Positions 23,687 to 60,182 of a stretch of 64,000 nt of DNA are shown one piece after another (positions within the stretch are counted from its first letter, which is position 1; every line of letters begins with the position of its first letter). A model generated the notes under the pieces. The model did no database searches, was not told where the DNA came from, and saw only the letters and a list, made by a program, of their open reading frames with translations. The stretch is from positions 41,023 to 105,022 of IMG/VR virus record IMGVR_UViG_3300020392_000008. The stretch is one strand, 5' to 3'. Source of the stretch: a virus. The position numbers and the translations under genes are program-made.

Positions 23687-24352
23687 ATGCCTGCATTTGA
23701 TGAACTAAATAAAAAAATCAATAATAGAATTCAAGAAATATCAATAAAAATACATAAGAAAAAATACACTAAAAAAGAATATGAAGAAATAGCAGAACTA
23801 GTATATCCAAAATTAAAATATCATATTTGGAAGTTTTGTAAAAACGATTTAGACACCGAAGAAGCCCTTCACTTTACCCTAGTTAAAATATTTAATAATA
23901 TAGAAAAATATAACCCAGAATCAGGTAGATTTACTACTTGGGCATTTACAATAGCTAGAAATGAAACTTTGTATTATTTAGATAGAAAATATAAAGATAT
24001 TCCTAAATACATAGAAATATCTGCTTTATATGAAGATAGTAAATATAATGATCAGCTTTCTGCGGATCAAATTTCTAGTAATCATAATGAAGTAACTGAA
24101 ATATTTAATAAAACTATTAATGAAATATTTAATTTAGAAGACGAACTTTTAAAAAACATAGCCATTGATAAAATGGTAAATAATACTAAAGTTAAAGAGA
24201 TAGCAAAAAAATATAACATGCCTGAAAATACAGTCAAAACAAAACTTAGAAAAGCCAGGTTTGAAATACGAAAATCTGTTATCAGGAAAGACCCAGATGT
24301 AAATAAAAAATTATCAGACTCGTTACCTGATTTTAAAATAAAACAAAAATGA
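23687..24352 (+). CDS. RNA polymerase sigma factor, ECF-like
   Basis: 221 residues. Region 2 lies at about 28-105: YPKLKYHIWKFCKNDLDTEEALHFTLVKIF, then PESGRFTTWAFTIARNETLYYL, which matches the -10-binding helices of sigma-70/ECF factors. Region 4 lies at about 155-205, with IAKKYNMPENTVKTKLRKAR as the helix-turn-helix for the -35 box. The length and two-domain layout are those of ECF sigma factors. In T4 the late factor is gp55, which recognises TATAAATA; the GATAAATA/TATAAATA boxes found here before virion genes are natural candidates for this protein. That pairing is inference. Confidence 0.85.
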   Translation: MPAFDELNKKINNRIQEISIKIHKKKYTKKEYEEIAELVYPKLKYHIWKFCKNDLDTEEALHFTLVKIFNNIEKYNPESGRFTTWAFTIARNETLYYLDRKYKDIPKYIEISALYEDSKYNDQLSADQISSNHNEVTEIFNKTINEIFNLEDELLKNIAIDKMVNNTKVKEIAKKYNMPENTVKTKLRKARFEIRKSVIRKDPDVNKKLSDSLPDFKIKQK

Positions 24353-27479: not shown

Positions 27480-28463
27480 ATGGATAATAAAGATGATCTA
27501 GCTAAAGAAGCCCTAGGTGAACTTGAAGCCAGTAGTCAATTAGAATACGATAAATCTGAAAAAGAAAAACCAAAAAAAGTAACCAGCTTAGGAAAAGCTT
27601 CAATATCTTCCACCGTTGATACAATGGCAAATGAATCAGGTTGGAAATTAGTAGCTTTAAATAATCTTCCTTCTCAAGGTTTTTTCTATGATAGAAATAT
27701 TGAAATACTAATAAAGTCTGCTAAAACTAAAGAAATAAGACATTGGTCTACTATAGATGAACACGACCCTATAGATGTTTCTGATAAAATAGCATTTGTA
27801 ACAGATTCATGTAGTAAGTTAAATATAAAGGGAGAAATAAAAAATTTAAATTCTAATGATATATTAGAAATTGACAAATATCAAACTTTATTTAAAATAC
27901 ATAGATTGACTTTTCCAAATAATGAAAATGTTTTAAAGGCAAATATTAAATGTTCAAATACCAAATGTGGACATGTTAATTCTATACCGGTAAGTGATAC
28001 TAATTTACAAGGATTTCAAATTCCAGAAGAAATGATAGAATTTTACTCAGAAGAAGAAAGATGCTTTATTATAAATTCTGAAAAATTAGGAGAAACTATA
28101 AAATTGTACATGCCAACTATAGGATCAACTAAGCTTATTAATGAATATAAAAAATTATGTAAAAGAAGAGGGTATAATGAAGATAAATCAATAGATAATA
28201 TTTTGCCTTATCTTATACCTAGTTGGAAAAACACTGAAGTTTCTGAATTGTTTAGTATTAGAAACCAGAGTAATAACTGGTCTCAAAATAAATTTATTTT
28301 TTTACACAAAGCTACTGAACTATTATCTCTTAATTCCAAAAATAAAGTACTTGGAATTTGTGAAAAATGCAGTAATAAAATGGCCTCTTCTATTTTTTTG
28401 GGAGGAAGCTTCACAGCAAAAGATATTTTCATTGTTTCAACTAGACTTAGAGACCTTGTTTGA
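27480..28463 (+). CDS. Baseplate hub / tail assembly chaperone, T4 gp26-like
   Basis: 327 residues. The N-terminal half has the family entry segment LPSQGFFYDRNIEILIKSAKTKEIRHWSTID, typical of T4 base plate proteins gp26/gp51. There are two Cys pairs that look like a zinc site (CSNTKC near 157 and CEKC near 292). The stop at 28461 lies close to a seven-T run, with a downstream frame that encodes the expected C-terminal helix block (see next entries). In T4 these proteins act in hub assembly upstream of the tape measure gene, and the next large gene here fits that position. Confidence 0.75.
   Translation: MDNKDDLAKEALGELEASSQLEYDKSEKEKPKKVTSLGKASISSTVDTMANESGWKLVALNNLPSQGFFYDRNIEILIKSAKTKEIRHWSTIDEHDPIDVSDKIAFVTDSCSKLNIKGEIKNLNSNDILEIDKYQTLFKIHRLTFPNNENVLKANIKCSNTKCGHVNSIPVSDTNLQGFQIPEEMIEFYSEEERCFIINSEKLGETIKLYMPTIGSTKLINEYKKLCKRRGYNEDKSIDNILPYLIPSWKNTEVSELFSIRNQSNNWSQNKFIFLHKATELLSLNSKNKVLGICEKCSNKMASSIFLGGSFTAKDIFIVSTRLRDLV
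28393..28399 (+). other. Slippery T7 run, candidate programmed frameshift site
   Basis: Seven T residues (28393-28399) inside the hub gene, reading ATT TTT TTG in frame. A slip of -2 (or +1) here would join the first 305 codons to the frame that continues to 28671. Tail assembly chaperones commonly use programmed frameshifts, including the -2 shift of phage Mu. No experimental evidence. Confidence 0.5.
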
Positions 28464-28671
28464 TATAAATATGGAATTAGCTGTGAAGCTTAATCAAAGC
28501 TTAGATACACTATACGACTTAGATTTTTTAGAATATTCAATGCTTGTTTCTTCTATTAAAAGAAAAATAAAAGAAAAAAATGAAAGCCAATCTTCTTCAG
28601 ATGACGTATACTTTGATAACTCAAAACCAACTAAGTTAGGAATACCAGATAACTTAAAAATGGGTAGATAA
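28396..28671 (+). CDS. gp51-like / hub C-terminal extension in the shifted frame
   Basis: Frame +1 relative to the hub gene, open from before the T7 run to the stop at 28669. It reads FFWEEASQQKIFSLFQLDLETLFDIN then MELAVKLNQSLDTLYDLDF and SMLVSSIKRKIKEKNES, which matches the helical C-terminal block of phage gp26/gp51 proteins (FNxSLxxLxxM, then a helix ending in KEKNE). It could be made by frameshift fusion or as a separate 66-residue gp51-like protein from the ATG at 28471, 7 bases past the hub stop. Confidence 0.6.
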   Translation, partial: FWEEASQQKIFSLFQLDLETLFDINMELAVKLNQSLDTLYDLDFLEYSMLVSSIKRKIKEKNESQSSSDDVYFDNSKPTKLGIPDNLKMGR

Positions 28672-28694: not shown

Positions 28695-30500
28695 ATGGCT
28701 TCTGAAAATTTAAACTCTTTTATAACCCTATATAAGGAAAAGGCTCAGTTATCCCTAGATAAAGCAACTAAAACGCTTGAAAAAAGACAGGGCCAACTTG
28801 AAACGTTTAACACGTTACGACCTCTTCTTTTAGAGGAAGCTAAATCGCTTGACTTTTTAGAAGACTTTGAAAGACTTTTTCCTGAGAATGGAGATAGTCC
28901 TTTTTTTTCACAATCTGATCTTAACGCATATGTTGGAATGCTAGAGTTAGTTGATGACTCAAAGCAATTAAAGGCTTTTTATAAAATATCAAGGGCCCCT
29001 AAAAGATTAGAAACTGCTAAGGAGTATTTAAAGTATGCTGAAGCCGATCTAGCCAGAGACCCGGAAGAATATCTAGGCAAACTCCATGGTGCGCTAATAG
29101 GAGAGCTTGCTAAATCAGCCAGTATGGGTGCTGGAAATATAGATTCATTAAAACAAAAAGTTTTCGAAGATCAGGATTCATATGAGGATATAATAGAATA
29201 TGCGGCAGAAAATGTAGATGGCCCAAGAGGGGTTAAAACTAACCCTGCTACATATGCGGCCTTAAAAGAATTAGTAAACAGTAGTTCTAACACGGAATCA
29301 GCGGATTCAGAAAACATAGAAACACAAGAGGTTTCTCCAATAAATGAAGAAGATTCAACCAATGATGTTGATTTAGAAAAAGAATCATCGGCTATAAACG
29401 AAACTGAAGAAGAAATTATATTAGAAGAAGATTCTAAAGAATTAGCTGAACCTATTGAAGAACCGGAAGTATCGCCTGAAACGGTTGTGGAAAGTTCAGG
29501 TTTAGATATTCCCGAAGAAAAAGAAGAGGTTTTACAGGAAATAGAAGAACCTATAAGTGAACCTTCTCCGGTAGAGTCTCCGCCTTCTATATCATCTGAT
29601 TCCCCCGTTTTACAAGAAACAAATGACGATAAAGAATTAGAAAGTAAATCTATAAACGAGGTTCCTATTCAAAAAGCAGAAGAATTACCTTCTTTAGAAA
29701 CAACTGAAGTTGTAAATAACATAACTAACATAGATAATATTTCAGAGGATAGTACTAATACGACTACTAATATAGAAGAAAATACAGGAGACATTAATAC
29801 TAACACTATAAATGATATTAAAAAGCCTATTACTACATCTGGTGAAGGTACTATTTATCAGCAAGCCGCTGTTTCTGGGCCTAGTAGTTTTTTAAATAGT
29901 TTTTTACAAGACATAACAGGAATGTCTAACGAAGAAATGAATGCTATAACTAATATGGGTTCTTCGGTTGTAAACAATATGAGTAATGAATCTAATATTG
30001 AAAATATTAACACAACCGCCATGGAATCATCTATAGGAGACTCTATAAAAGAATCTAATATATCTAGTATAAATCAAGTGGAAAACATCACAGGTGGCAT
30101 CTCTAGTGCAATGGATGAAACTAAAAGTTTAGTTAATAATAATATTTCAGAAAATTTTGAAAAAAATTCAAATTTTAGCTCGTTTGAAGAATCTTCTATA
30201 ATTAAACCTGAACCTATTACAAAAGAAGATATTGGTTCAGTTGGTAAAGATATATCTAGTGAAATAACTTCTACTATGTCTTTATCTAGCGGCGATAATG
30301 AGCCCACTTCTTCATCTAATAATTCTATAATGGAAAATTCAACAGCTAGTTCTACTCAACCAGCTATGAATAAAGCTAGTGGTGAAGGAGATAACGTAAT
30401 GATTGAAGAATCCAGTATAGATACTGCCACTTTAGAAAAAAGATTAAAGAACATAGAAATATTACTAATGGGTCCTTTAGAAGTTAAAATAAAAAATTAA
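28695..30500 (+). CDS. Large acidic Ser/Asn-rich structural protein, 601 aa
   Basis: The first 200 residues are helical (coiled-coil-like KAQLSLDKATKTLEKRQ). From about 215 to 400 there is a long acidic, proline-spaced low-complexity region (ESSAINETEEEIIL, SPETVVESSG), then Ser/Asn-rich sequence with a basic end (MGPLEVKIKN). It follows the hub gene, the usual place of a tape measure or internal tail protein, but it lacks the long uninterrupted helix typical of tape measures. Call it a tail-region structural protein. Confidence 0.6.
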   Translation: MASENLNSFITLYKEKAQLSLDKATKTLEKRQGQLETFNTLRPLLLEEAKSLDFLEDFERLFPENGDSPFFSQSDLNAYVGMLELVDDSKQLKAFYKISRAPKRLETAKEYLKYAEADLARDPEEYLGKLHGALIGELAKSASMGAGNIDSLKQKVFEDQDSYEDIIEYAAENVDGPRGVKTNPATYAALKELVNSSSNTESADSENIETQEVSPINEEDSTNDVDLEKESSAINETEEEIILEEDSKELAEPIEEPEVSPETVVESSGLDIPEEKEEVLQEIEEPISEPSPVESPPSISSDSPVLQETNDDKELESKSINEVPIQKAEELPSLETTEVVNNITNIDNISEDSTNTTTNIEENTGDINTNTINDIKKPITTSGEGTIYQQAAVSGPSSFLNSFLQDITGMSNEEMNAITNMGSSVVNNMSNESNIENINTTAMESSIGDSIKESNISSINQVENITGGISSAMDETKSLVNNNISENFEKNSNFSSFEESSIIKPEPITKEDIGSVGKDISSEITSTMSLSSGDNEPTSSSNNSIMENSTASSTQPAMNKASGEGDNVMIEESSIDTATLEKRLKNIEILLMGPLEVKIKN

Positions 30501-36936: not shown

Positions 36937-38364
36937 ATGAAAAAAATAGCTATAATACTTGGAAGAGGAGTAGAAGGTTGTGGAGTAACTCGATGCGCAG
37001 TCGAATTTCAAAAAGCAACCCCTAATACAAAAATATTTGCAACAATAGATAAAAAATGGGCCCGTAGAGACACCATGGTTTTTGACAAAGATGAGTTTAC
37101 TTGCGCAAATTCAGAGGAAATGAATAAAGTGCTAACAGAAGTTAATAAAAATTTCGATATGGCTCTTATATATTCTGTTCCTTCTAAAAAACATCCTGAA
37201 GATTGTCAAACTAATTTTGTTAAACTTGTTAAAGGAATAAATTTACCCAAAGCGATTATTCAACTAGACCATAAAATGCAGTCTTTAAGTAGAAATGGAA
37301 AGTTTGATGAAATATGCAGTAATGTAGATGTTTTAATGACTCATTCTTTAGAATCTGATTTTACAAGATGGGCAAAAAGAGAAAACGTAAATACTCCTTT
37401 CAAAAAAATGGCATTGGGTTTTACATATGATGATCATAGAGAAAAATACTGGCTGCCAATAAGTGAGCAAGATCATAAAACAGTTAGATGGATTGGTAGG
37501 CTATCTGGCTGGAAAGGACCTAATTTAATGATGGACTTTCATGCTCAACATTTAATGAAAGAAGGCTACATAACAATACTTGAAGGACTAGAGGCAAGTA
37601 TAGGTTGGGCAGGCATATTGTATGAAAAAGGAGATAATAAAAATGGAAAACCTTTTTATAAAGATAATGAAATAGTAAATTATTTTAGACCTAGAAAAGA
37701 ATTAAACGAGGTAAAATTTACAGAAGATTTGCATGGAAAAGAAATTCATGGAGCTGGAGCGTACTTATATCCTCCTTATACAAATGTAGACTGCATGGAA
37801 CGTATGGCAAAAAGTGCTTTTGGGTCTGATTTATACCATTTGAAAGCTCATATGTATGGTAACAATATTGAAAATTGCCATGCTGAAGTAATTGCATCTG
37901 GAACTATCCCTATTTTTCATAAACATTTTTGCGATAATGTAATACATAGAGTTACTGGAAACCCTGTAAGTGAAGATAGTCATAGTGGAACAATAGGACT
38001 TGATAAAACTAATTTTAATAAATGTTCAAATCTTATGGTTAAATTATCTAATGATCCTGTGATGAGAGATGAAATGAGAGAAATGTCATTTGAATATTGG
38101 AAAAAGCATTCAAACGCAGAAATATGTACACATGAAATCATTAAAAATCTAGAAGATATAGTATCAGAAAAAGGTTTTATAGGTGCACAGGAATCCTCTA
38201 ATGTACCTAATGATAATAACCAATTAAGTATATTTGATTCAATAGAAAGTACACCAAAAGTATCTAATGCTATTATAGAAGAAAATTTACAAAAAAATTC
38301 TAATGATGTTACTAATGAAACTGTAGATTATGATTCATTATTAAATGACTTAAAAAACTTATAA
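36937..38364 (+). CDS. DNA glycosyltransferase, T4 alpha-glucosyltransferase (Agt)-like
   Basis: 475 residues. Hallmarks of the T4 Agt family (GT-B fold): GRGVEGCGVTR at 9-19, RWIGRLSGWKGPNLMMDFH at 184-202, LEGLEASIGW at 215-224, ERMAKSAFGSDL at 288-299 and AEVIASGTIPIF at 316-327. T4 Agt transfers glucose from UDP-glucose to hydroxymethylcytosine in DNA; relatives in other T-even-like phages transfer other sugars. A C-terminal acidic tail (about 395-475) is extra compared with T4. Together with the dehydrogenase (52563) and epimerase (60266) it predicts glycosylated DNA, possibly with a pentose. Substrate unproven. Confidence 0.82.
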   Translation: MKKIAIILGRGVEGCGVTRCAVEFQKATPNTKIFATIDKKWARRDTMVFDKDEFTCANSEEMNKVLTEVNKNFDMALIYSVPSKKHPEDCQTNFVKLVKGINLPKAIIQLDHKMQSLSRNGKFDEICSNVDVLMTHSLESDFTRWAKRENVNTPFKKMALGFTYDDHREKYWLPISEQDHKTVRWIGRLSGWKGPNLMMDFHAQHLMKEGYITILEGLEASIGWAGILYEKGDNKNGKPFYKDNEIVNYFRPRKELNEVKFTEDLHGKEIHGAGAYLYPPYTNVDCMERMAKSAFGSDLYHLKAHMYGNNIENCHAEVIASGTIPIFHKHFCDNVIHRVTGNPVSEDSHSGTIGLDKTNFNKCSNLMVKLSNDPVMRDEMREMSFEYWKKHSNAEICTHEIIKNLEDIVSEKGFIGAQESSNVPNDNNQLSIFDSIESTPKVSNAIIEENLQKNSNDVTNETVDYDSLLNDLKNL

Positions 38365-54608: not shown

Positions 54609-55040
54609 ATGCAGGTATTAAAGGTTCCATTAGTAAAAGACTCATTATTTGAAAGAGAGCTAAAAAAATATCTCTTATATAGAATGGACTTATTATTTAA
54701 AGAATACAACAATAATATACCTGACACTATTTCATGTAAAGGTCACTTAGGGAAGCATGTATTTAATATTATAACTAGTAATAATTGGAAATTTGGTTCA
54801 ACTAAAATAGTTCACGAGAAGGGTCCTAATGCAATAGAGATAAGGTTCGACAATGGTATAAGCATAGAAAAAAATTCTAAATTATCAATGGGCACCGGTT
54901 CAACTATGGATGGTAGAGTAATTGAAGGATTTATAGATTCTAAAAGCCAGGCTTCTATTATACAATCTTCCATAGATAATAATTTTACTATAGAAAAAAT
55001 TGTTAACCCCAAGGTTATTATAAAGTTAGAAAAACTATGA
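54609..55040 (+). CDS. Hypothetical protein, 143 aa
   Basis: Mixed alpha/beta protein (ERELKKYLLYRMDLLF; KFGSTKIVHEKGPNAIEI; SMGTGSTMDGRVIEGF). Convergent with the cyclase gene, overlapping it by 6 bases. No known family. Separated from it functionally unless both act on nucleotides, which cannot be shown. Confidence 0.5.
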   Translation: MQVLKVPLVKDSLFERELKKYLLYRMDLLFKEYNNNIPDTISCKGHLGKHVFNIITSNNWKFGSTKIVHEKGPNAIEIRFDNGISIEKNSKLSMGTGSTMDGRVIEGFIDSKSQASIIQSSIDNNFTIEKIVNPKVIIKLEKL

Positions 55041-55742
55041 AATATCCTTAACTACATAGGCTGTTACTTTGCCTACTCCTTTTAGTTTACTCAATGGTTC
55101 ACAGGTATGCAATTGAAGTTCAGATAACATTCTTCCAGATCTTTTTCTTTTTCCAGAATAACATTTATGTCTATAGTCTATAATTTCCATTTTATATTTA
55201 CTATCGTTTAAATACTTTACTATTTTTTCTTCTTGTAATTTATCTAAACTTTCTGTAAAACTAAAAGCCATTTCACCAGATTCAGATACAGTTGATTCCA
55301 TTCTAGATGCAGTGTTTACCGTATTTCCAAAATAATCCCATAATTTTTTATTTTGAATATTTACTTTCTTTTTATATAAAGGACCCCATGATATTCCCAT
55401 TCTAATAGTTAAAGGTTTTCCTTTTATCTTAATGGGTTTTTTATAAAGATTTTTTTGTATTTCTATGCCCGCTAAAATGGCTTTATATAATGAATCTTTT
55501 CCATCCCAGCCTAACATATAGCTATCGCCTATTGTTTTTATAATATCTCCACCGTGCTTTGGAACTATTGTTTCCATTCTTTTTTCATGTTCTTTAAGAG
55601 CGTCAAACATTCCATCTTTATGTAAGTTCCAAAGTTTAGAACTACCCTTGACGTCTGTGAATAAAATAGCTTGATCTTTTTCTTCTAGTTTATCTAAATC
55701 GGATACGCTTTCAAACAATTTAAAAGATGTTATCATGTTCAT
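55035..55742 (-). CDS. Class III nucleotidyl (adenylate) cyclase with packaging-type N-terminus
   Basis: 235 residues, cyclase homology domain at about 25-170. All catalytic positions are present: metal Asp30 (ILFTDVKGSS) and Asp73 (KTIGDSYM), base-selecting Lys69 and Asp136 (LWDYFGNTVN), transition-state Asn143 and Arg147 (TVNTASRM). The Lys/Asp pair predicts ATP and cAMP. The C-terminus (about 170-235) has a basic helical tail. The N-terminus MNMITSFKLFES has an LFE|S site of the packaging type. A phage-encoded cyclase is rare; a signalling or host-reprogramming role, or interference with cyclic-nucleotide defence, are possible. Confidence 0.85.
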   Translation of the reverse strand: MNMITSFKLFESVSDLDKLEEKDQAILFTDVKGSSKLWNLHKDGMFDALKEHEKRMETIVPKHGGDIIKTIGDSYMLGWDGKDSLYKAILAGIEIQKNLYKKPIKIKGKPLTIRMGISWGPLYKKKVNIQNKKLWDYFGNTVNTASRMESTVSESGEMAFSFTESLDKLQEEKIVKYLNDSKYKMEIIDYRHKCYSGKRKRSGRMLSELQLHTCEPLSKLKGVGKVTAYVVKDIS

Positions 55743-57468: not shown

Positions 57469-58064
57469 TTACAATCTTTACAATTAGAGTTAGAATTAGA
57501 ACTAGATTTACCTTTATTTCCTGTAGCGTATTTTACACCCATTATTGTACCTATTATACTAAATGCATTTGTTAATAGTATACCAAACATGTTGCTCCAC
57601 GTGTTTCCTATTAGCTGTGTTTCTTTATCATAATATATAGAAAACATATAAAGGATTGTTGTAAATAAACCTACTCCTATTATAATAGCCAGTGCTATTT
57701 TTACTATGACAGTTACTAGTTCAAATTGTGTCTTTTTTTGAAGAATGTCTAAGTCTTTTAATGCATTTTGTTTAGAATGCTCGGCTGTTTTTAGAGCGTT
57801 TTCTAATTTAGAATTTGCTTTTTCTACACTTTGCGTTGCGCTTTTTAATTGCTTATTTTGAGCTTGAACTTGCTTAGTTATGTCTAAACGTTTTCTTTGT
57901 TTTTCTTTTTGTAAATTAGTTGCTTTTTTTACATACTCTTCTAAGTTTTTATCATTTTCAGAATCTATCAATTTTAAAACATTACCTTCTATGTATATGC
58001 TTTTTTCTTTTCCTACTTGTAAAAGCTTTTCCTTGGTTTCTTTACAAAAAGTTATTTTCATCAT
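57465..58064 (-). CDS. Coiled-coil two-TM protein downstream of the two-component genes
   Basis: 199 residues. A helical coiled-coil region (about 50-110, QVQAQNKQLKSATQSVEKAN) with an unusually high Lys/Gln content is followed by two membrane helices (about 117-142, LVTVIVKIALAIIIGVGLFTT, and 154-176) and a Ser/Asn/Cys-rich tail (SSSNSNSNCKDCN). Its start overlaps the response regulator stop by 4 bases, so it is translated with it. It may be a sensor partner or an output component. No family recognised. Confidence 0.6.
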   Translation of the reverse strand: MMKITFCKETKEKLLQVGKEKSIYIEGNVLKLIDSENDKNLEEYVKKATNLQKEKQRKRLDITKQVQAQNKQLKSATQSVEKANSKLENALKTAEHSKQNALKDLDILQKKTQFELVTVIVKIALAIIIGVGLFTTILYMFSIYYDKETQLIGNTWSNMFGILLTNAFSIIGTIMGVKYATGNKGKSSSNSNSNCKDCN

Positions 58065-58498
58065 TTGTATATCTTAAAAGAATTTGTTCTATCTACGTAA
58101 CCCGGATAGTCTTTAAGAAAATCTTCTAATCTAGGCTCTATTTCGTCAGATTTAATTATCCAAAATTGAGCACCTGCGCTTATTGCTCTTGCCTGTTCTT
58201 CCTCCTCGTCGCTCGATGATATTATTCCTACGACTACATGATTTCCATAGTTAAAATTAATACGTCTAATTAATTCTATTCCATCGAAGGAGGAACCTAT
58301 CATATTTAAATCTACAAAAACGCATGACGGTTTTTCATGTTTCTCTATTCCATCAAACCATTTTTTAAACATTTTTTCTGCACCGTCTGCACTATTAATA
58401 GCCCTTAGGGATAGTGTTATATCTAATAAGCTACACGCGTCCTCAAACACTAAATGAAACAAATCTTCATCATCAACTAACATTATAGAATCAATCAT
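58061..58498 (-). CDS. Response regulator, single receiver domain
   Basis: 145 residues. The CheY fold is complete: acidic pocket Asp9-Asp10-Glu11 (MLVDDEDLF), phospho-acceptor Asp63 (VFVDLNM), switch Ser95/96 (GIISSSDE) and Lys116 (FWIIKSDEI). There is no DNA-binding or enzymatic output domain, so it must act through a partner. It lies 22 bases downstream of the histidine kinase on the same strand, with its own GATAAATA box at 58522. Stand-alone receivers in phages are uncommon. Confidence 0.88.
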   Translation of the reverse strand: MIDSIMLVDDEDLFHLVFEDACSLLDITLSLRAINSADGAEKMFKKWFDGIEKHEKPSCVFVDLNMIGSSFDGIELIRRINFNYGNHVVVGIISSSDEEEEQARAISAGAQFWIIKSDEIEPRLEDFLKDYPGYVDRTNSFKIYK

Positions 58499-58520
58499 AG
58501 TAATTTAAATATTATTATAT

Positions 58521-60182
58521 TTATTTATCTAAAGATATTTCTAGTTTAGTCCCTTTTCTACTTTTTAAAAGATTTAATTTCCATCCATGCTCTTTTATTA
58601 TCGCTATACATATGTTTAAACCGAGCCCGCTTCCAGATTCTTTATTATTGTGCTTTCGGGTATATGGCTTTGAATATTCTTCAAATTCTGTTTTACTCAT
58701 TCCTCTACCGTTATCTTCTACTACAATATTTCCTTTTTTTCTGTATATTTTAACTAATTTAGTATTGCTATCGTTATATTTTAAACCGTTTCTTATCAAA
58801 TTATCAATTGCTGTACAGAATAAAGACCCATTAACTATTTCTTCTCCTAATTCCGATAAAGATACGCTACTAGAATAGGCTGTGTTTTTTAAATAACTTT
58901 TTAATATACTGGTTAAATCTAGTTTTTGCACTTCCATTGTAGATTCCTTTTTAACTAAATTTGTAAATTCTTTAACTCCATTATATACTTTTTGAGAATG
59001 TGTAAGCCCTCCTTTTAATAATTTCATAGGCCCTTCAAACATTTTATTCAAGTCTTCTATATCTATATTATTTTCTTCAGAAAATTTAACAAGCCTTCTT
59101 TCGAATGAAGATATTCCTCTGGGAATATATGTATTTATTCCACTATGCATATCGTGTCTTAATATTTTAGAAGCATGTTCTAGATACGAATTTTTTCTTT
59201 CAAGTTCTATTTTTTGATTTATAGAATCACTTATATCGTTGGCTATTTTAAGTACTTTTACAACTTTACCTTTTGAATTTACTATAGGATTATATGTTCC
59301 GGCTATCCAAAAATGAGAACCATCTTTTTTTATTCTCATATATTCTCCATATTTAGAATTTCCATTTTTTATATCTTCCCAAAACGATTGATATTTTTCG
59401 TTTTCTTTCCATTGATCATCTTCCATAAATATTGTATGATGTTTACCCTGTATTTCATGAAGGGTTGGATACCCAGTCATTTCTAAAAACTTATTATTTG
59501 CGTTTATTACAAATCCATTTGTACAAAATTCAACAGTTGCGCTAGATTGATTTATGGCTAACATAATACCTGTCATTTCCTCTTCCTTGTTTTTAAGTTT
59601 TTCTAAAGAATCATATAGATCTGTTAAATCATGCCTAACTGACATAAAACCAATATGATTATTTTTTTCATCAAATTCAGCCATTATCCATGAATCAACT
59701 GTGTAATGCTTACCGTTTTTTTTACGATTTATAATTATTTCATTCCATATGGCTTTATGTTTCACGGTTGATGTGTACATTTTATTCCAAAAATTTAAAT
59801 CATGCTTTTTAGAACTTAACATAGAGTGATTTTTACCTAGTAACTCATGAGGCTTATATCCTGACGAATCGCAAAATATTTTATTTACATGTGTTATAAC
59901 ACCGTTTTTATCTGTTTTAGAAATTAAAGATGATTCGTTTAATATATTTTCAATAGTATTTCTTTTAATAGTTTCTATTCTTTGTCTCTTAATTATATCT
60001 TTAATTATTATCAACAATAAAGGCATTGATGATAATATACATACAAAACCTATTGATGAAACAGCATGGGTAGGTTTTATTAAGTCAAAAGCTAATAAAG
60101 TTTGAAGTATTGAAAATAATATCATTACTGTTATTAATAAAGTAATACTTACTTTAGATCTAAGTGTTAGGTTTTTAAACAT
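58521..60182 (-). CDS. Membrane PAS sensor histidine kinase
   Basis: 553 residues. Two membrane helices at about 11-31 and 41-60, PAS domains at about 76-190 (with FCDSSGYKPHELLGKNHSML) and 200-320 (WIAGTYNPIV), then an HisKA-type dimerisation helix with His343 (LRHDMHSGIN) and an HATPase domain: N box DNLIRNGLKYND from 460, G1 DNGRGM at 490-495, G2 GSGLGL at 517-522. It should sense a signal in or near the membrane and phosphorylate the adjacent regulator. A TATAAATA box lies 24 bases upstream. A full two-component pair in a phage is rare. Confidence 0.92.
   Translation of the reverse strand: MFKNLTLRSKVSITLLITVMILFSILQTLLAFDLIKPTHAVSSIGFVCILSSMPLLLIIIKDIIKRQRIETIKRNTIENILNESSLISKTDKNGVITHVNKIFCDSSGYKPHELLGKNHSMLSSKKHDLNFWNKMYTSTVKHKAIWNEIIINRKKNGKHYTVDSWIMAEFDEKNNHIGFMSVRHDLTDLYDSLEKLKNKEEEMTGIMLAINQSSATVEFCTNGFVINANNKFLEMTGYPTLHEIQGKHHTIFMEDDQWKENEKYQSFWEDIKNGNSKYGEYMRIKKDGSHFWIAGTYNPIVNSKGKVVKVLKIANDISDSINQKIELERKNSYLEHASKILRHDMHSGINTYIPRGISSFERRLVKFSEENNIDIEDLNKMFEGPMKLLKGGLTHSQKVYNGVKEFTNLVKKESTMEVQKLDLTSILKSYLKNTAYSSSVSLSELGEEIVNGSLFCTAIDNLIRNGLKYNDSNTKLVKIYRKKGNIVVEDNGRGMSKTEFEEYSKPYTRKHNNKESGSGLGLNICIAIIKEHGWKLNLLKSRKGTKLEISLDK
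58522..58529 (-). promoter_or_regulatory. Late-promoter-like box GATAAATA before the response regulator
   Basis: Minus-strand GATAAATA within the end of the kinase gene, 23 bases before the regulator start. Confidence 0.45.

What the first reader, a model, noticed from the sequence alone, without database searches (positions are those of the whole stretch)
27480..28671. Candidate programmed frameshift joining gp26-like and gp51-like frames at a T7 run
The gene stops at 28461 but an overlapping +1 frame carries the conserved C-terminal helix block. A TTTTTTT run (28393-28399) sits in the overlap where a -2 or +1 slip gives a fused protein. This mirrors the tail-chaperone G/GT strategy, including the -2 shift of Mu, at a position just upstream of the tail-length gene region.
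Basis: partly seen in the sequence, partly recalled or inferred. Interest (0 to 1): 0.7.

Follow-up and report, generated by a model that had tools for sequence, protein, structure and literature searches.

The report
Frameshifted phage tail-assembly chaperone gene
A virus of bacteria appears to make a short and a long version of one tail-building helper protein by having ribosomes slip into another reading frame at a run of T's, and many related giant viruses keep the same slip site, so it is a well-supported new example of a known trick, with an unusual slip direction and sequence.

Summary
ORF1 (27480-28463) is followed by a +1-frame ORF ending at 28671. In 65 related loci, and in 82/82 contexts found with a pattern that omits the run, [ACG]TTTTTT[TC] sits at the same place; in the 65 loci the ORF1 stop lies 68 or 74 nt after the first T. 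From the run onward the sequence evolves as +1-frame code (pN/pS 0.28 in +1, 1.74 in frame 0); upstream as frame-0 code. Loci with no possible upstream +1 start show the same. A second clade, and Lak megaphages, use the same frame with UUU-C instead of a T run; UUU-pyrimidine is a known +1-prone site. ORF1 belongs to the T4 gp26/gp51 family (Pfam for two relatives, predicted fold for this one); ORF2 corresponds to the gp51 C-terminus. I conclude it makes the short/long tail-assembly chaperone pair (like lambda G/GT) by +1 slippage at UUU-Y; -2 slippage on the run is not excluded. T4's two-gene solution and -1 sites in T4-like phages appear already published (paper not readable here). The +1 UUU-Y version in this lineage did not turn up in the papers I could search. 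No protein evidence.

The parts
27480..28463 (+). ORF1, unshifted product: short tail-assembly chaperone (TAC-N, gp26-like), 327 aa, with two Cys pairs
   Evidence: Open frame; relatives at about 20-77% identity; phrog_36717 E 5e-19 up to residue 305, i.e. to the slip site; distant relatives pass the PF12322 cut-off; predicted fold
28393..28399 (+). Slip site, T7 run inside ATT TTT TTG; P-site UUU 28395-28397, +1 re-pairing on UUU 28396-28398, next codon TGG at 28399
   Evidence: Invariant N-TT-TTT-T[TC] in 65 loci and in 82/82 contexts of a run-free pattern; codon-level invariance
28393..28463 (+). Dual-coding overlap: frame 0 encodes the tail of the short form, +1 frame the start of the T domain
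   Evidence: Change of frame constraint at the run
28399..28671 (+). Shifted-frame extension (gp51-C/T-like domain), 90 aa after the junction plus stop; fused protein 396 aa if +1 (397 if -2)
   Evidence: hhalign of the T-domain profile to cyanophage/T4 T domains 87%, E 4e-6; helices at residues 309-373 in the model
28461..28463 (+). Frame-0 stop ending the short form; kept in all clade-A loci while the overlapping +1 residue varies E/K/D/N/S
28695..30500 (+). Neighbouring ORF, 601 aa, low-complexity middle; a possible tape measure or other tail protein, not shown
   Evidence: no significant Pfam or PHROG family

Best explanation
This is the tail-assembly chaperone (TAC) gene of a T4-type contractile-tailed phage. 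Most ribosomes read ORF1 to its stop and make the short form (TAC-N, like lambda gpG and T4 gp26). A minority slip at the conserved NUU UUU Y site 68 nt before the stop, most likely +1 with tRNA-Phe moving from UUU to the overlapping UUU, and go on in the +1 frame to make a long form carrying a helical C-terminal extension (TAC-NC, like lambda gpGT and T4 gp51). By analogy with lambda, many short and few long copies would coat the tape-measure protein, the extension would recruit tail-tube subunits, and both would leave before the tail is finished. Shown by sequence: conserved site, dual coding, conserved stop, fold and family relation. Inferred: that the shift happens and how often, the +1 direction, and the assembly role.
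For: Run invariant in 65 loci and in 82/82 contexts of a run-free pattern, at fixed place and frame. Frame 0 pN/pS is 0.54 upstream and 1.74 in the overlap; +1 frame is 1.08 upstream, 0.28 in the overlap, 0.17 in its core. Parsimony on trees: frame-0 third-position changes fall from 12.8 to 1.25 per site at the run; same pattern before the commonest +1 ATG and in 21 loci with no possible upstream +1 start. 25 of 65 loci have no ATG/GTG/TTG in +1 frame at or before the run. Frame-0 stop kept in all while the +1 residue over it varies. Clade B: +1 ORF2, TTT in 54/58 and fourth base C in 58/58 although the next residue is P, R or Q. Lak phages have TTT-C and a +1 ORF2 too. UUU_Ynn is especially +1-prone in bacteria (PMC5009743). 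Homology. Related cyanophage gp26 genes: U UUU UUC one codon before the stop and a -1-frame T ORF in 78/78.
Against: No peptide, reporter or ribosome profile. Some relatives lack UUU-Y: L297/L299/L301/L306 have UUC-C, L305 has no UUU at the place, Chryseobacterium MA9V-1 and Tenacibaculum PTm1 have other sequences. L227 has lost the overlap and starts ORF2 with its own ATG. No consistent RNA structure around the site (mean z between -1.3 and 0.5). Conservation of the two 5' Ts of the run is not needed by a simple +1 slip. A direct profile comparison of a small ORF1 alignment with the gp26 family was weak, and the window's own ORF1 does not reach PF12322. Clade B pattern in the overlap is two-frame rather than +1-dominated in its first part.
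Confidence: 0.8

Rival explanations
1. The frame change in this clade is a -2 ribosomal slip (Mu-like) on the T run, giving I-F-F-W at the junction instead of I-F-W.
For: UUU can re-pair two bases back because codon 1 is NTT; that codon is ATT/CTT/GTT in every sequence although Ile, Val and Leu (CTN) codons elsewhere in the gene end in T only about 45% of the time.
Against: Clade B, Lak, PAU, pT24 and MaF61 have UUU-C with no preceding Ts, so -2 re-pairing of tRNA-Phe is impossible there, yet the T domain is in the same frame.
Confidence: 0.12
2. RNA polymerase slips on the T run and transcripts missing one U (or with two extra) encode the fusion.
For: A homopolymer run lies at the right place in an AT-rich phage.
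Against: 17 of 82 contexts have only six Ts, and relatives have no run at all (TTTC).
Confidence: 0.04
3. ORF2 is a separate protein started inside the overlap or by reinitiation near the ORF1 stop.
For: 50 of 65 loci have an ATG in +1 frame 57 nt after the first T; annotators of MA9V-1, PAU, pT24 and PTm1 called separate ORFs; L227 has a genuinely separate ORF2.
Against: +1-frame constraint begins at the run, upstream of any shared start, and holds in loci with no possible upstream start; the window lacks the common ATG.
Confidence: 0.03
4. Both frames are open by chance or by assembly error.
For: T7 runs are common in the window.
Against: The same arrangement appears in more than 120 distinct loci from many metagenomes and in isolate genomes.
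Confidence: 0.01

Closest known systems
T4 gp26 / gp51 (Pfam PF12322 T4_baseplate; tail-assembly chaperones of T4-like phages, Vladimirov, Gautam and Davidson 2022, known here only through PMC10885494 and PMC12846349)
   Same: Same protein family for the N-terminal part, short and long forms, gp51 C-terminus corresponding to ORF2
   Different: T4 has two separate paralogous genes on opposite strands; here one gene with a frameshift
gp26/gp51-like pair of cyanophages (Kyanoviridae), Vibrio phage Va3, Stenotrophomonas phage Moby
   Same: One gene followed by a short ORF in another frame, with a U-rich slip candidate near the end
   Different: -1 frame and canonical U UUU UUC, one codon before the stop; here +1 (or -2), 68 nt before the stop
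Lambda G/GT
   Same: Two forms differing by a C-terminal T domain from low-level frameshifting (PMC5009743)
   Different: -1 shift; non-contractile tail; sequence similarity not tested here
Phage Mu tail chaperone
   Same: T ORF in the +1 frame, reached by -2 in Mu (PMC5009743)
   Different: Mu's slip sequence is G-rich (own knowledge); here a U run or UUU-C
UUU_Ynn +1 shift sites (Yersinia yopN-tyeA; influenza A UCC_UUU_CGU; both from PMC5009743)
   Same: Same tetranucleotide; one clade-B phage reads TCC TTT CGC
   Different: Other genes and hosts

Membership tests
T4-like tail-assembly chaperone (PF12322, gp26/gp51) | Sequence match to the family profile | tested here: inconclusive
   Window ORF1 itself not matched; its relatives L004 (29.1 bits) and PAU gp93 (33.9 bits) pass the 24.5 cut-off; profile comparison A4 vs A6 weak
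T4-like tail-assembly chaperone (PF12322, gp26/gp51) | Fold | tested here: met
   Model pLDDT 85.8; BFVD matches to annotated baseplate hub proteins of SP-15, AF3, and gp26 of Aeromonas phage 25, E 7e-9 to 1e-3
T4-like tail-assembly chaperone (PF12322, gp26/gp51) | gp51-type C-terminal extension | tested here: met
   hhalign 87%, E 4e-6 for the clade A+B T-domain profile; L227 ORF2 vs phrog_634 E 1.6e-4; window ORF2 alone has no PHROG hit
Frameshifted TAC (G/GT) | Conserved overlap with both frames open and a conserved shift site | tested here: met
Frameshifted TAC (G/GT) | Gene lies in the tail module between tube and tape measure | tested here: inconclusive
   In PAU, pT24 and MA9V-1 the gene follows the sheath gene and a few small genes; a long ORF comes a few genes later in PAU and MA9V-1; the window's own tube, sheath and tape measure were not identified
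Frameshifted TAC (G/GT) | Both products are made and are absent from virions | not testable with these tools
   needs proteomics
-1 slippery heptamer sites | X XXY YYZ in frame 0 leading to the -1 frame | tested here: not met
   T ORF is in the +1 frame; frame-0 codons are ATT TTT TTG
UUU-Y +1 sites | UUU codon followed by U or C, second ORF in +1 frame | tested here: met
   Clade A UUU-U in all 65; clade B UUU-C 54/58; that slippage occurs there is untested

The most novel reading that the evidence does not exclude
One homologous chaperone gene has used -1 (cyanophages), +1 (clade B, Lak) and, in this clade, -2 or mixed +1/-2 slippage at the U run, while T4 replaced slippage with two genes; the extra conserved Us in this clade would be the mark of a switch of slip direction that left the target frame unchanged.
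Probability: 0.2. Interest if true: 0.75.

Novelty: new variant of a known kind. Interest (0 to 1): 0.55.

Why it matters
It puts a programmed +1 shift at UUU-pyrimidine, reported for few bacterial genes, into a tail gene conserved across a large group of T4-type phages whose isolates infect mostly Bacteroidota and which includes the Lak megaphages. It would give a function to many 'hypothetical' genes and correct their annotation. It also gives a natural series (-1, +1, possibly -2, split gene, duplicated gene) for asking how a shift site changes direction while its products stay the same. Isolates such as PAU, pT24 and MA9V-1 make it directly testable.

Tried and rejected
Nucleotide search against known phages found nothing. 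RNA structure as a stimulator: no consistent signal. The GGGAGG after the run as a Shine-Dalgarno-like element: missing in several clade members, so not pursued. Profile comparison of ORF1 with the gp26 family using about ten sequences a side was weak; the family relation rests on Pfam hits of relatives, fold and the T domain instead. No similar solved structure was found. My first thought that the cyanophage -1 site would be new was dropped: PMC12846349 cites poly-T -1 signals in T4-like TAC genes from Vladimirov et al. 2022.

Full report
WHAT IS THERE. The window (part of a 105-kb virus record) holds ORF1 at 27480-28463 and, overlapping its end, an ORF in the +1 frame to 28671. The T7 run at 28393-28399 reads ATT TTT TTG in frame 0. 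T7 runs as such are about as common as expected in this AT-rich window, so the run by itself is not evidence.

CONSERVATION OF THE SITE. A first relative (L001, 65% protein identity) keeps the overlap almost letter for letter. A profile scan of IMG/VR found 591 relatives, of which 80 were kept. In the 65 loci that form clade A (window included), the run [ACG]TTTTTT[TC] is always present in the same frame, and the ORF1 stop is 68 nt (57 loci) or 74 nt (8 loci) after its first T. To avoid circularity I scanned with a pattern lying downstream of the run and not including it: 82 of 82 distinct contexts have the run at the same place; most of these contigs overlap with the first set. Other conserved Ile, Phe and Leu codons in the gene vary in their third base (T in 9-89% of sequences); the two codons of the site never do.

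DUAL CODING. On 45 non-redundant sequences, pN/pS in frame 0 is 0.54 upstream and 1.74 in the overlap; in the +1 frame it is 1.08 upstream, 0.28 in the overlap, 0.17 in its core and 0.37 after the ORF1 stop. Counting changes by parsimony on trees reduces the effect of relatedness: frame-0 third-position changes drop from 12.8 per site upstream to 1.25 in the overlap, and in the overlap the freest position is the third position of the +1 frame (upstream versus overlap chi-square 38.7, p 4e-9). The pattern holds before the commonest +1 ATG and in 21 loci that have no ATG, GTG or TTG in the +1 frame at or upstream of the run. So the +1 frame is most simply translated from the run onward by ribosomes that started in frame 0. 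The frame-0 stop is kept although the +1 residue lying over it varies between E, K, D, N and S, so the short form is kept too.

THE SAME GENE ELSEWHERE. Protein searches reach phages at about 20-30% identity: Lak megaphages of Prevotella, Tenacibaculum phages pT24, PTm1 and PTm5, Chryseobacterium phages MA9V-1/2, Flavobacterium MaF61, phage PAU and uncultured huge phages. In those whose match reaches the end of ORF1, a second ORF follows in the same +1 frame. A second IMG/VR scan gave clade B: 58 distinct loci whose site is TTT followed by C in 54 (TTC-C in four related ones); the base after the Phe codon is C in all 58 although it begins Pro, Arg or Gln codons. In many, a +1-frame TAA sits just before this site, so the shift must come after it. 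In clade B constraint passes from frame 0 to the +1 frame between about 57 and 42 nt before the stop. Lak phages, read with TAG as Gln, have TTT CAA at the site and a +1 extension of about 150 aa. L227 is a natural exception: the overlap is gone and ORF2 has its own ATG and a re-encoded copy of the lost segment.

DIRECTION. In clade B and the others with UUU-C there are no Ts before the Phe codon, so tRNA-Phe can re-pair only forward, on UUC. UUU_Ynn is described as especially prone to +1 shifting in bacteria (PMC5009743). A +1 slip at UUU-Y therefore explains both clades. Clade A's two extra conserved Ts are not explained by this and would allow -2; I leave that open. Downstream RNA structure is not consistent; the same review notes that some tailed-phage shifts seem to lack stimulators.

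WHAT THE PROTEINS ARE. Relatives L004 and PAU gp93 pass the Pfam cut-off for PF12322, to which T4 gp26 and gp51 both belong. The predicted structure of the fused protein is confident (mean pLDDT 85.8) and matches predicted structures of PAU, pT24 and PTm1 homologues and of annotated baseplate-hub/gp26 proteins, down to gp26 of Aeromonas phage 25. The ORF2 domain profile aligns with the cyanophage gp51-like ORFs and the C-terminal part of T4 gp51, and L227 ORF2 hits phrog_634, 'baseplate hub assembly catalyst'. In PAU, pT24 and MA9V-1 the gene follows the sheath gene and small genes; PAU and MA9V-1 have a long ORF a few genes on. The window's own tape measure and tube were not identified.

COMPARISON. 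T4 has gp26 and gp51 as separate genes on opposite strands. Cyanophage-type gp26 genes end in U UUU UUC, one codon and a stop in 78/78 loci, with a -1-frame gp51-like ORF; Va3 and Moby look alike. PMC10885494 reports, citing Vladimirov et al. 2022, that some T4-like phages carry a short and a long TAC gene instead of shifting, and PMC12846349 cites poly-T -1 signals in T4-like TAC genes. That paper was not available. The T4 and -1 parts are thus prior art as far as I can tell. The +1 UUU-Y version in this lineage did not turn up in ten literature searches, which cover only open-licence papers.

VERDICT. A programmed frameshift in a TAC gene is about 0.95 likely in my estimate; with +1 at UUU-Y as the main route, about 0.8. 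New variant of a known kind. Protein evidence is lacking and is the decisive next step.

Noticed in passing
window 58061-60182, minus strand: A PAS-domain histidine-kinase-like protein (PAS stretches, HATPase) next to a response-regulator receiver protein on a phage record: a possible phage-borne two-component system.
   Followed up: no
window 55035-55742, minus strand: A protein with an adenylate/guanylate cyclase catalytic domain (PF00211, E 9e-23), unusual for a phage.
   Followed up: no
window 36937-38364: A T4-type DNA alpha-glucosyltransferase (PF11440, E 1e-30), suggesting glucosylated phage DNA.
   Followed up: no
L315-L394 (cyanophage-type loci), end of gp26: U UUU UUC NNN stop in 78/78 distinct loci with a -1-frame gp51-like ORF; in two named genomes looked at, the second ORF is annotated separately.
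   Followed up: partly
L227:3507-3818: A relative in which the frameshift is lost and the T domain is a separate gene with its own ATG and a re-encoded overlap segment.
   Followed up: partly
L297, L299, L301, L306: A clade-B subgroup with TTC CCA instead of TTT C at the site, where simple tRNA-Phe re-pairing would fail; how these shift is unexplained.
   Followed up: no
window 23687-24352: A sigma-70-like protein (region 2, weaker region 4) a few genes upstream of the chaperone gene; it may direct late transcription.
   Followed up: no
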